From NCBI RefSeq assembly GCF_000368965.1, contig NZ_KB849779.1, positions 372,001 to 436,000 on the forward strand: a stretch of DNA of 64,000 nucleotides. Direction: 5' to 3'. The translations under genes were made by a program, and so were the position numbers. Origin of the DNA: Acinetobacter calcoaceticus DSM 30006 = CIP 81.8. Lineage in GTDB: Bacteria > Pseudomonadota > Gammaproteobacteria > Pseudomonadales > Moraxellaceae. The notes under the pieces were generated by a model that ran no database searches, was not told where the DNA came from, and was given only the letters and a program-made list of their open reading frames with translations. Numbering within the stretch: the first letter of the stretch is position 1; each line of letters opens with the position of its first letter. Shown in pieces: positions 33,084 to 35,399 of this stretch.

Positions 33084-34577
33084 TCATAAAATCAATCCGT
33101 TTGATGATAATTCAACCGCTTTGATCACTGCGCGAGCTTTTATTTGTGTTTCATTCCATTCTGATTCAGGATTTGAGTCTGCAACCAGCCCTGCTCCAGC
33201 CTGCACATACACCTTTTTATCACGGATAACACACGTACGGATTGCAATCGACATGTCCATTTCACCATGCCAACCTAAATACCCCACTGCCCCGCCGAAA
33301 ACGCCTCGCTTAACAGGCTCAACTTCATCAATGATTTCCATTGCACGAATTTTCGGTGCGCCAGATAGAGTACCTGCTGGAAAGGTTGCCTTAAATACAT
33401 CTAAGGCATCGATATCATCACGAACTTCACCTTGCACATTTGAAACAATGTGCATGACATGCGAATAGCGCTCAATCACCATTTGATCAGTAACTTTAAC
33501 CTTACCAATTTTAGAAACTCGACCAACATCATTTCGACCAAGGTCAATCAACATTAAATGCTCTGCTATTTCTTTTTCATCAGAAAGTAAATCTTTTTCT
33601 AAAGCGATGTCTTCTTCTTTAGTTTTTCCACGCGGTCTTGTACCTGCAAGCGGACGAACTGTCGCAATACCATTTTCCAGACGAGAAAGAATTTCTGGTG
33701 ATGATCCTACAATATGGAATGGTTTGTTATCTGTAATTGTTTGACCCTGCACCAAAAACAAATATGGTGAAGGGTTTAAATGACGTAAAGCACGGTAAAC
33801 TTGCAAAGCCTCACCATCAAAGTCCGAAACCATACGCTGGCCCGGAACAACCTGCATAACATCGCCCGCTCTAATGTATTCTTTTACCTTCTCAATTGTT
33901 TCAAGGAACTTAGCCTTACCCGTAATCGATTCAAAATGAGGCGGTGTATGCGGCTTAGCTTGCAAACTCACTGGTGTAGCTAATAACTGCTCTAATTGAT
34001 CTAACTTTTGCTGAGCATCTTCATAAGCATCTGGCTGCGTTGTATCAGCATGGATAATTAAAAACAAAGTATCTTTAAGGTTATCGAAAACAATGACTGT
34101 CTTTGATAGCATCAACCACAAGTCTGGTAAAGCAATTGGATCAGCAGCAGGTACATTCTTTAAGCGCGGCTCAATATAACGAACTGCATCATAGCCCAAA
34201 TAACCAACTAGCCCGCCAGTAAAACTTGGTAATGCTGGCAGAAGCTCAGCTGGTGGCACTGTAAATTGCTTCTGAAATTCACGAATATATTGAAATGGAT
34301 CTAGGCAATCTTCTTGTGTGATCGAACCATCAGCATGCTGTATAGACAAGACCCCTGCATTACATGAAAAAACTGTCGATTCGCCTAAACCGATCATGGA
34401 GTAGCGCGCCCAGTTTTCACCACCTTCGACAGACTCAAATAAATAAGCTTGTTTTTGGTCCTTAAAACGAGCAAAAACAGATAAAGGTGTTTCCGTATCT
34501 GCCAAACGCTGGCGATAAACTGGAATCGTGTTGTAACCTGATGCCTTAAGTTGTTCAAATTGCGCTAATGTAGTCAT
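33084..34577 (-). CDS. trpE: TrpE, anthranilate synthase component I
   Basis: A 497-residue enzyme converting chorismate to anthranilate, with ammonia supplied by TrpG (not in this window), the first step of tryptophan synthesis. The C-terminal chorismate-binding domain is complete: VVPGQRMVSDF, FHIVGSSPEILSRLENG, RPLAGTRPRGKT, LIDLGRNDVGRVSKIGKV, and TLSGAPKIRAMEIIDEVEP. The N-terminal domain binds feedback tryptophan in relatives. It follows gph with a 109-bp gap containing a short ORF and competing repeats. trpE here stands apart from trpGDC, as is usual in Acinetobacter and Pseudomonas. Confidence 0.97.
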   Translation of the reverse strand: MTTLAQFEQLKASGYNTIPVYRQRLADTETPLSVFARFKDQKQAYLFESVEGGENWARYSMIGLGESTVFSCNAGVLSIQHADGSITQEDCLDPFQYIREFQKQFTVPPAELLPALPSFTGGLVGYLGYDAVRYIEPRLKNVPAADPIALPDLWLMLSKTVIVFDNLKDTLFLIIHADTTQPDAYEDAQQKLDQLEQLLATPVSLQAKPHTPPHFESITGKAKFLETIEKVKEYIRAGDVMQVVPGQRMVSDFDGEALQVYRALRHLNPSPYLFLVQGQTITDNKPFHIVGSSPEILSRLENGIATVRPLAGTRPRGKTKEEDIALEKDLLSDEKEIAEHLMLIDLGRNDVGRVSKIGKVKVTDQMVIERYSHVMHIVSNVQGEVRDDIDALDVFKATFPAGTLSGAPKIRAMEIIDEVEPVKRGVFGGAVGYLGWHGEMDMSIAIRTCVIRDKKVYVQAGAGLVADSNPESEWNETQIKARAVIKAVELSSNGLIL

Positions 34578-34592
34578 GAATTTTTCTCTAAT

Positions 34593-34654
34593 ATGGTTTC
34601 GATTTAAAACGGTGTTTTTCTAGTTTCGATTTAGACACGCCATCGAAAAACCAT
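34593..34654 (-). promoter_or_regulatory. Repeats before trpE that can form alternative hairpins
   Basis: On the minus strand, ATGGTTTTTCGAT (34642-34654) can pair either with ATCGAAAC at 34623-34630 or with ATCGAAACCAT at 34593-34603. The two downstream copies are direct repeats of TAAATCGAAAC. The pairings exclude each other, and the second lies just before the trpE ribosome site. Confidence 0.4.
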
Positions 34655-34666
34655 ACGCTTATTCAT
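34631..34666 (-). CDS. Possible 11-codon leader peptide before trpE
   Basis: ATG 34666, seven bases after GGAGA, encodes MNKRMVFRWRV and stops at TAA 34631-34633. It contains a single tryptophan codon. It overlaps the left arm of the repeats that can fold in two ways. This is the layout of a leader peptide, but one Trp codon is few for classical attenuation, so the call is tentative. Confidence 0.35.
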   Translation of the reverse strand: MNKRMVFRWRV

Positions 34667-34686
34667 GCTGATCTCCATTTCACTCA

Positions 34687-35355
34687 TTAGATAATTAACT
34701 CAGCCAAACTATCAACTACTTGCTGAGGTTGGCAATCATAGATATTTTCTCCATGATTATAGCCATAGCTAACCACAATACAATCAATTCCCGCGCGGCG
34801 TGCAGCCTCAATATCATTACTTGAATCGCCAATCATTAGCGAGTGCGAAGCAGATATCTTTAAACTTTGCATACAATGCAACAAAGGTAATGGATGTGGT
34901 TTTCTCTCTGGCAAGCTATCACCACCCAGTACAACTTGAAAATAAGAAGAAAGTTCCAATGCATCCAGCAATCCTTGGGCAAGTTGCACAGGCTTATTGG
35001 TAACACATGCCATATGTATATTCAAAGTTTTACAATGCTTTAAAAACTCAGTTACTCCAGGATAAATTTGAGTATTTACACAAAGCTCTGCACCGTATAC
35101 ATCTACAAATTTTTGTAATAAAACTTTATGTTGTTCGGTGTCTAATTTTCCAAATATATGAAGCAAAACACTTTCACAAAGTTTTGAAGCTCCTTTACCC
35201 ACCCATTCTCGTATTTGTGCTTCAGTTACCAATGGCCAACTTAGCGCGTCTAAACTTAAATTCATGGATCGATATAAATCAGCTGCAGAGTCAACTAACG
35301 TTCCATCTAGGTCAAATAAAATTAAATCGCGCTTATTTAGTTGTGCAACAGACAT
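34687..35355 (-). CDS. gph: Phosphoglycolate phosphatase-like HAD hydrolase
   Basis: A 222-residue HAD-family phosphatase. ATG 35355 follows AAGAAG closely; the open frame extends 13 codons upstream without a ribosome site. Motif I is LILFDLDGTLVDSAADL with the nucleophile Asp and acid/base Asp. Motif II is in MACVTNKP, motif III is the Lys of ERKPHPLP, and motif IV is MIGDSSNDIEAARRAG. This matches Gph, which removes phosphate from 2-phosphoglycolate formed in DNA repair. The gph-trpE order is conserved in pseudomonads and relatives. An alternative phosphosugar substrate cannot be excluded. Confidence 0.88.
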   Translation of the reverse strand: MSVAQLNKRDLILFDLDGTLVDSAADLYRSMNLSLDALSWPLVTEAQIREWVGKGASKLCESVLLHIFGKLDTEQHKVLLQKFVDVYGAELCVNTQIYPGVTEFLKHCKTLNIHMACVTNKPVQLAQGLLDALELSSYFQVVLGGDSLPERKPHPLPLLHCMQSLKISASHSLMIGDSSNDIEAARRAGIDCIVVSYGYNHGENIYDCQPQQVVDSLAELII

Positions 35356-35373
35356 CTTCTTATACTCAAAATT

Positions 35374-35399
35374 AAAAAGGCATGCGTTTAGCATGCCTT
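35374..35399 (-). terminator. Terminator of the FHA gene
   Basis: Minus strand: GGCATGC, loop TAAAC, GCATGCC, then TTTTT. It lies 20 bp after the FHA stop and just upstream of gph. Confidence 0.85.

What the first reader, a model, noticed from the sequence alone, without database searches (positions are those of the whole stretch)
34593..34666. Short ORF and mutually exclusive hairpins before trpE
In the 109-bp gph-trpE gap, an 11-codon ORF with a good ribosome site (MNKRMVFRWRV) overlaps an arm that can pair with either of two direct repeats (TAAATCGAAAC). This is the geometry of an attenuator or translational switch. There is only one Trp codon and no U-run terminator, so classical attenuation is unlikely. 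Arrest of a ribosome on the leader, or a switch over the trpE ribosome site, is conceivable.
Basis: partly seen in the sequence, partly recalled or inferred. Interest (0 to 1): 0.5.

Follow-up and report, generated by a model that had tools for sequence, protein, structure and literature searches.

The report
Conserved tryptophan-gene leader peptide
A tiny 11-codon gene just before the tryptophan-synthesis gene trpE is kept in nearly every species genome held for its genus, and probably lets a ribosome that pauses on its tryptophan codon open a hairpin that otherwise hides the start of trpE.

Summary
A leader ORF with Arg-Trp-Arg at its core (usually M-x5-F-R-W-R) precedes trpE in 172 of 174 genomes of the genus that have trpE. 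The third base of the Arg8 codon was free in the search, yet it is CGA in 172 of 172; CGA is 7% of Arg codons in 40 window ORFs. The start codon lies exactly 7 codons before it in 165 of 172. The leader core can pair with sequence just before the trpE ribosome site: better than shuffles (68 clusters, Stouffer z -9.0) and better than swapped partners (p 0.0001), unlike neighbouring arms. Mutually exclusive hairpins are not supported: the first repeat is marginal (-5.9 against -14.2 kcal/mol) and rarely kept. None of 130 spacers has a terminator-like hairpin. Likely mechanism, inferred: translational attenuation, a ribosome waiting at the Trp codon frees the trpE ribosome site. ORFs with R-W-R, W-R-W or R-R-W near their end precede trpE in 54 of 77 other loci of the order; in Pseudomonas the motif usually ends the upstream gph frame (75 of 79 loci). 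Rfam, NCBIfam and ten literature searches gave no description of it.

The parts
34631..34666 (-). leader ORF MNKRMVFRWRV, 11 codons plus stop
   Evidence: Read; an ORF with FRWR (LRWR in 5) is in 172 of 174 genomes of the genus with trpE.
34671..34676 (-). ribosome-binding site of the leader (GGAGAT)
   Evidence: Sequence; GGA, GAG or AGG lies upstream of the leader start in 162 of the 165 leaders with the 7-codon spacing.
34638..34649 (-). conserved core TTTTCGATGGCG: last base of codon 6, Phe7 TTT, Arg8 CGA, Trp9 TGG, first two bases of Arg10
   Evidence: Arg8 CGA 172 of 172, Arg10 CGT 86, CGA 58, CGG 28, codon 7 TTT 167 of 172 (CGN-TGG-CG was the search pattern). The exact 12-mer occurs twice in the whole genome, the other copy on another contig.
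34642..34656 (-). 5' arm of the trpE-sequestering hairpin, inside the leader ORF
   Evidence: Duplex with the trpE-proximal partner -13.4 kcal/mol; arm specificity and own-against-swapped partners, partition function.
34592..34606 (-). 3' arm (second repeat and flank, TAAATCGAAACCATA), directly before the trpE ribosome site
   Evidence: Expected 12.4 pairs with the 20-nt arm; repeat found in 16 of 17 (window and 16 closest); ATCGAAA near trpE in 36 of 113 others, where other sequences pair instead.
34623..34633 (-). first repeat TAAATCGAAAC, containing the leader stop codon; not a conserved pairing partner
   Evidence: Intact in 6 of 17, ATCGAAA near the core in 0 of 113 others, 0.03 expected pairs with the arm.
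34584..34590 (-). weak trpE ribosome-site-like sequence TAGAGAA
   Evidence: Read; masking the core raised predicted accessibility of the trpE start region above shuffles in 41 of 49 clusters.
33084..34577 (-). trpE, anthranilate synthase component I (regulated gene)
Evidence: ORF; strong tblastn-type matches in 174 of 175 genomes of the genus.
34687..35394 (-). gph-like phosphatase ORF upstream; mechanical start, the likelier start is the internal ATG giving MSVAQL
   Evidence: ORF; the Pseudomonas homologue's frame usually ends in the leader motif.

Best explanation
This is a genus-wide trpE leader peptide that controls trpE by translational (ribosome-mediated) attenuation. Shown by sequence comparison: a conserved short ORF with Arg(CGA)-Trp-Arg at a fixed distance from its start, and a predicted hairpin, supported by comparison, in which codons from about Met5 to Trp9 pair with the sequence just before the trpE ribosome site. 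Inferred: when charged tRNA-Trp is plentiful, the ribosome passes the core and leaves at the stop codon, the core pairs with the trpE start region, and trpE translation is low. When charged tRNA-Trp is scarce, the ribosome waits with CGA in the P site and UGG in the A site, covers the core, and leaves the trpE start region open. The rare CGA codon directly before UGG is proposed to make a single Trp codon a usable sensor.
For: ORF: 172 of 174 genomes with trpE; CGA 172 of 172 against 7.3% of Arg codons in 40 window ORFs; start exactly 7 codons upstream in 165 of 172, while residues 2-5 vary. Pairing of the core arm with its spacer: mean z -1.09, Stouffer -8.97 over 68 clusters; arms shifted by 9, 18 and 27 nt give -1.13, +1.77 and +2.88; own partners -11.47 against swapped -10.26 kcal/mol, p 0.0001. 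Fraction of core paired with the trpE start region 0.594 against 0.273 in shuffles, above in 46 of 49 clusters; masking a ribosome footprint at CGA-UGG opens that region by 0.198 against 0.080, above in 41 of 49. Arm and partner change together in L057, L060, L345-L348, L351 and L354. Terminator-like hairpin in 0 of 130 spacers.
Against: No expression data: response to tryptophan, transcript start and translation of the ORF are untested. A control that kept the last 16 nt of the spacer intact showed no excess gain (27 of 49 clusters, p 0.50); it retains much of the partner. Three of 49 clusters fall below their shuffles in pairing: L062 and L220 (no pairing at all) and L048. Taken one by one only 23 of 110 sequences reach p below 0.05. 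Clusters are not independent by descent. A single Trp codon is a weak sensor by classical reasoning. Outside the genus the pairing signal is weak (Stouffer -2.13 over 54 loci).
Confidence: 0.6

Rival explanations
1. Nascent-peptide arrest: the peptide M-x5-F-R-W-R itself stalls the ribosome (with tryptophan or another ligand, or on its own), and codon supply is secondary. The hairpin over trpE is still the output.
For: Arg8 and Arg10 are as invariant as Trp9, and the distance from the start is 7 codons in 165 of 172. R-W-R fits the Arg/Lys-X-Arg/Lys context at which ketolides stall ribosomes (PMC8298421, start of abstract seen in the listing). [quoted passage not shown]
Against: Codon 8 is CGA in 172 of 172, which selection on the peptide alone does not explain. 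Phe7 is Leu in 5 of 172. No arrest was tested.
Confidence: 0.2
2. Transcriptional attenuation by Rho: a stalled ribosome on the leader protects the RNA, while release exposes the spacer to Rho.
For: No intrinsic-terminator-like hairpin in 130 spacers, and the leader ORF is conserved even where the predicted hairpin is absent (L062, L220).
Against: The pairing with the trpE start region itself appears to be under selection. Rho sites were not tested.
Confidence: 0.1
3. The conserved core is an RNA or DNA site (protein or small-RNA binding), and the ORF is incidental.
For: Synonymous TTC at codon 7 and CGC at codon 10 are seen in 0 of 172, and codon 8 is only CGA.
Against: An in-frame start, mostly with a ribosome site, is kept in 172 of 172. 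In the order the motif is read near the end of an ORF in 57 of 77 loci (54 after setting three aside), against 1 of 77 on the other strand. In Pseudomonas it is in frame with gph.
Confidence: 0.05
4. Classical trp attenuator with two mutually exclusive hairpins and a terminator.
For: Gene context and a Trp codon in a short leader ORF fit.
Against: One Trp codon in the core, terminator-like hairpin in 0 of 130, first repeat not conserved.
Confidence: 0.03

Closest known systems
trp operon leader of Escherichia coli (trpL attenuator; recalled, from no call)
   Same: Short leader ORF with Trp codon(s) and a neighbouring Arg codon before trpE.
   Different: One Trp codon in the core instead of two in tandem, no terminator-like hairpin, output predicted on translation; no Rfam match beyond a chance hit.
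Attenuation of trpE and trpGDC in Pseudomonas putida (Olekhnovich and Gussin 2001; title seen only in the reference list of PMC8297930; the paper is not held)
   Same: Same order and gene; 78 of 79 Pseudomonas loci read here, one of them labelled P. putida, carry a related R-W-R-W-R end before trpE.
   Different: Two Trp codons in ARWRWRA, usually in the gph frame. Whether that paper describes this element could not be read.
Translational attenuation of the erm type (recalled)
   Same: Short leader ORF; a stalled ribosome opens a hairpin that hides the downstream ribosome site (predicted).
   Different: Proposed signal is charged tRNA-Trp instead of a drug; biosynthetic gene; stall not shown.
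TnaC leader of the tryptophanase operon (recalled)
   Same: Short Trp-containing leader, no intrinsic terminator.
   Different: The conserved motif here (R-W-R) is not one I recall from TnaC; controls synthesis rather than breakdown. Not compared by any search.

Membership tests
Classical trp transcription attenuator | leader ORF before a trp biosynthesis gene | tested here: met
   172 of 174 genomes with trpE
Classical trp transcription attenuator | tandem Trp codons in the leader | tested here: not met
   One Trp codon in the core; a second Trp among residues 2-8 and 10 in 1 of 165 aligned leaders
Classical trp transcription attenuator | U-run terminator and competing antiterminator | tested here: not met
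   0 of 130 spacers with a terminator-like hairpin, 0.5 expected; first repeat not conserved. In 67 order loci 5 had one, 1.7 expected.
Rfam RNA families | match to a curated covariance model | tested here: not met
   One chance match at E 9.9 in 501 bases of the window; none in 10 of the order loci
Translational attenuation (erm-type logic) | leader ORF with its own ribosome site | tested here: met
   Comparative evidence only; translation itself not measured
Translational attenuation (erm-type logic) | downstream ribosome site hidden by pairing that involves the leader ORF | tested here: met
   Predicted, and supported by shuffles and partner swaps; control showed no difference
Translational attenuation (erm-type logic) | ribosome stall at a defined codon induces the downstream gene | not testable with these tools
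   Only modelled by masking
NCBIfam curated families | match of a leader peptide to a curated leader family | tested here: inconclusive
   8 leaders of 20 or more residues scanned: 7 matched nothing, the Pseudomonas one matched the C-terminus of a Gph model.

The most novel reading that the evidence does not exclude
An order-wide class of trpE leaders in which a CGA-UGG codon pair inside an Arg-Trp-Arg peptide is the sensor: a slow codon (or an arrest-prone nascent peptide) tuned so that one Trp codon suffices, mostly working without a terminator, and carried either by a short ORF or by the tail of the upstream gene gph.
Probability: 0.3. Interest if true: 0.8.

Novelty: new variant of a known kind. 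Interest (0 to 1): 0.6.

Why it matters
It would show how a single tryptophan codon can serve as a regulatory sensor, and give trpE of this genus a defined control element. It also poses a sharp, testable question: why is a rare CGA codon kept before the Trp codon in 172 of 172 leaders of the genus and in 44 of 54 other leaders of the order? The Pseudomonas case, where the end of the gph frame appears to double as the leader, shows how such elements may move between short ORFs and host genes.

Tried and rejected
Two mutually exclusive hairpins: rejected, the first repeat is not conserved and is marginal in energy. Intrinsic terminator: 0 of 130 spacers of the genus, 5 of 67 loci of the order against 1.7 expected. 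Repeated genomic element: the exact core occurs twice in the genome, once at this site. The same leader before trpG of the window's own genome: not seen by eye. Rfam and NCBIfam: no leader family. Single-sequence folding: not informative (z -0.59). Per-sequence shuffles: mean z -1.07, p below 0.05 in 23 of 110 distinct sequences. Accessibility control keeping the last 16 nt: no difference (27 of 49, p 0.50); then a full-spacer shuffle; both are reported. Pairing across the rest of the order: weak. Promoter scan: 12 sites against 10.5 expected, not informative. Pattern TTTCGATGGCG in 175 genomes: 173 have a match somewhere, but chance matches are common (the reversed control also matches) and the list was cut, so it was not used as a count. 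Literature: ten searches listed no paper that I could recognise from title and abstract start as describing this leader in Acinetobacter; of the papers listed I read passages of five (PMC8297930, PMC8632094, PMC2965389, PMC1173090, PMC2395257), none of which mentions it there. Subscription papers are not held. Rho sites, transcript starts and macrolide dependence were not tested.

Dropped before counts: L168, L169 and L188 were set aside in the order set (57 became 54) because I judged their hits to be chance matches, those of L169 and L188 in rpe-like coding sequence; one search printed all three, searches left them out. L262 had no upstream sequence (80 became 79). G169 has no full trpE match (175 became 174). 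In one search the start was misassigned to an internal Met in the closest group; one search corrects it. Order and class loci were the best trpE matches of their searches, not a random draw.

Full report
WHAT IS THERE. In the gap is an 11-codon ORF, MNKRMVFRWRV, with a GGAG ribosome site. Its stop codon overlaps the first of two TAAATCGAAAC repeats. The second repeat lies just before a weak trpE ribosome-site-like sequence.

CONSERVATION IN THE GENUS. I searched the 175 genomes held for the genus. 174 have a strong trpE match; G169 has only a weak match of the related kind. I read the upstream region of all 174: 130 and 44. 172 have the leader ORF; L341 (G147) and L363 (G148) do not. The search pattern asked for CGN-TGG, in most cases followed by CG, so TGG and the first two bases of codon 8 were given; the rest was free. 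Counts over the 172: Arg8 codon CGA 172; Arg10 CGT 86, CGA 58, CGG 28; codon 7 TTT 167, TTG 3, TTA 1, CTT 1. An in-frame ATG lies exactly 7 codons before CGA in 165, and the other 7 have an in-frame ATG at another distance. Residues 2 to 5 vary (residue 2 is Asn in 81 of 165, residue 5 Met in 76); residue 6 is Val in 124 of 165. In 40 window ORFs of 200 or more residues CGA is 7.3% of Arg codons. So the peptide R-W-R, particular codons and the length before them are all kept.

THE HAIRPIN. I tested whether the leader core pairs with the spacer before trpE. With 172 sequences reduced to 68 clusters (spacers under 80% alike), the 20-nt core arm binds its own spacer better than dinucleotide-shuffled spacers (mean z -1.09, Stouffer -8.97, negative in 52 of 68). 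Arms shifted upstream by 9, 18 and 27 nt give Stouffer -1.13, +1.77 and +2.88. Own spacers bind better than those of other clusters (-11.47 against -10.26 kcal/mol, p 0.0001 from 10,000 permutations). An earlier run on 49 clusters of 130 sequences gave Stouffer -7.01 and p 0.0004. One by one the test is weak: p below 0.05 in 23 of 110 distinct sequences. Partner sequences shift and change with the arm: L057 and L060 (ATATTTCGAT with ATCGAAATA), L346, L347 and L354 (partners ending CATTGA), L345 and L348 (ACTTTT with AAAAGT). The sequence ATCGAAA itself is near trpE in only 36 of 113 genomes outside the closest group. In the partition function 0.594 of the core pairs with the trpE start region, against 0.273 in shuffles (above in 46 of 49 clusters). 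Masking a ribosome footprint around CGA-UGG raises accessibility of that region by 0.198 against 0.080 in shuffles (above in 41 of 49); masking upstream codons raises it by 0.058 against 0.027. A control that shuffled only the spacer outside its last 16 nt showed no difference (27 of 49, p 0.50); it leaves much of the partner in place. Clusters are related by descent, so these p-values are optimistic.

WHAT IS NOT SUPPORTED. The first repeat is not a conserved alternative partner: 6 of 17 in the closest group, ATCGAAA near the core in 0 of 113 others, 0.03 expected pairs in the window. Of 130 spacers none has a terminator-like hairpin (0.5 expected by shuffle).

BEYOND THE GENUS. I read 77 loci of other genera of the same order: 69 of the 115 genomes (its best trpE matches) and 8. 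57 have R-W-R, W-R-W or R-R-W within six codons of an in-frame stop in the 220 nt before trpE, against 1 of 77 on the opposite strand; three hits were set aside as chance, leaving 54. Examples are L174 with FRWRH, L122 with RRWRW and L128 with WRWRNWW. In the 54 the Arg codon before the last Trp is CGA in 44, CGC in 8 and CGT in 2, while CGA is 7.1% of Arg codons in the trpE stretches held for the same loci. In 79 named Pseudomonas loci with upstream sequence, 78 have the motif (opposite strand 2 of 79); 76 end LARWRWRA, and in 75 the frame is open for more than 150 codons. In the two unnamed loci L224 and L225 that frame is a gph-like gene, and an NCBIfam Gph model includes this tail. In 28 class-level loci 9 had a hit and none on the opposite strand. 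Core-to-spacer pairing is weak across the order (mean z -0.29, Stouffer -2.13 over 54 loci), and 5 of 67 order loci have a terminator-like hairpin against 1.7 expected, so the output mechanism may differ there.

MECHANISM. Shown by comparison: a conserved leader ORF, conserved codons, and pairing over the trpE start. Inferred: a ribosome waiting at UGG when charged tRNA-Trp is scarce covers the core and opens trpE; with ample Trp-tRNA the ribosome leaves and the hairpin closes. In most bacteria CGA is read by the inosine tRNA that also reads CGU and CGC (abstract of PMC3711424, seen in the listing). That such reading is slow in bacteria is recalled; inhibitory CGA-CGA pairs are described for yeast in the abstract of PMC6301793 (listing). 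That a slow codon before UGG makes one Trp codon sufficient is my proposal, untested. The alternative is peptide arrest: R-W-R has the Arg/Lys-X-Arg/Lys form at which ketolides stall ribosomes (abstract of PMC8298421, listing).

KNOWN OR NEW. Rfam has no real match and NCBIfam no leader family. Ten literature searches listed no paper that I could recognise as describing this leader in Acinetobacter (calls and papers in Tried and rejected). Attenuation of trpE in P. putida is in print (Olekhnovich and Gussin 2001), seen only as a reference in PMC8297930 (passages read); a legend of that paper also reports 3' ends next to a potential upstream ORF before trpGDC in P. aeruginosa. I file the element as a new variant of a known kind, ribosome-mediated control of trp genes.

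Noticed in passing
L224, L225, L226 and named Pseudomonas loci L233-L312: In Pseudomonas the gph frame usually ends in ...LARWRWRA (75 of 79 loci with a frame open for more than 150 codons), so the end of an enzyme gene appears to double as the trpE leader; in L226 (genome of L200) the same tail is a separate short ORF.
   Followed up: partly
window 34638-34649 and order loci L114-L200: CGA directly before the Trp codon is kept in 172 of 172 leaders of the genus and 44 of 54 others, although it is about 7% of Arg codons; predicted pairing does not involve it in every species.
   Followed up: partly
L341 (G147) and L363 (G148): The two genomes of the genus with trpE but no leader; in L363 the upstream sequence does not look like the usual gph end.
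   Followed up: no
G169: A genome of the genus (99% complete) without a full trpE match, possibly a tryptophan auxotroph.
   Followed up: no
L062, L082, L085, L095, L220: Group that keeps the leader ORF (MNMITFFRWRRS in L062); its two cluster representatives (L062, L220) show no predicted pairing of the core with the trpE start.
   Followed up: no
window 35377-35399: Terminator-like hairpin on the minus strand between an FHA-like gene (by eye) and gph, which may separate gph-trpE from the gene upstream.
   Followed up: no
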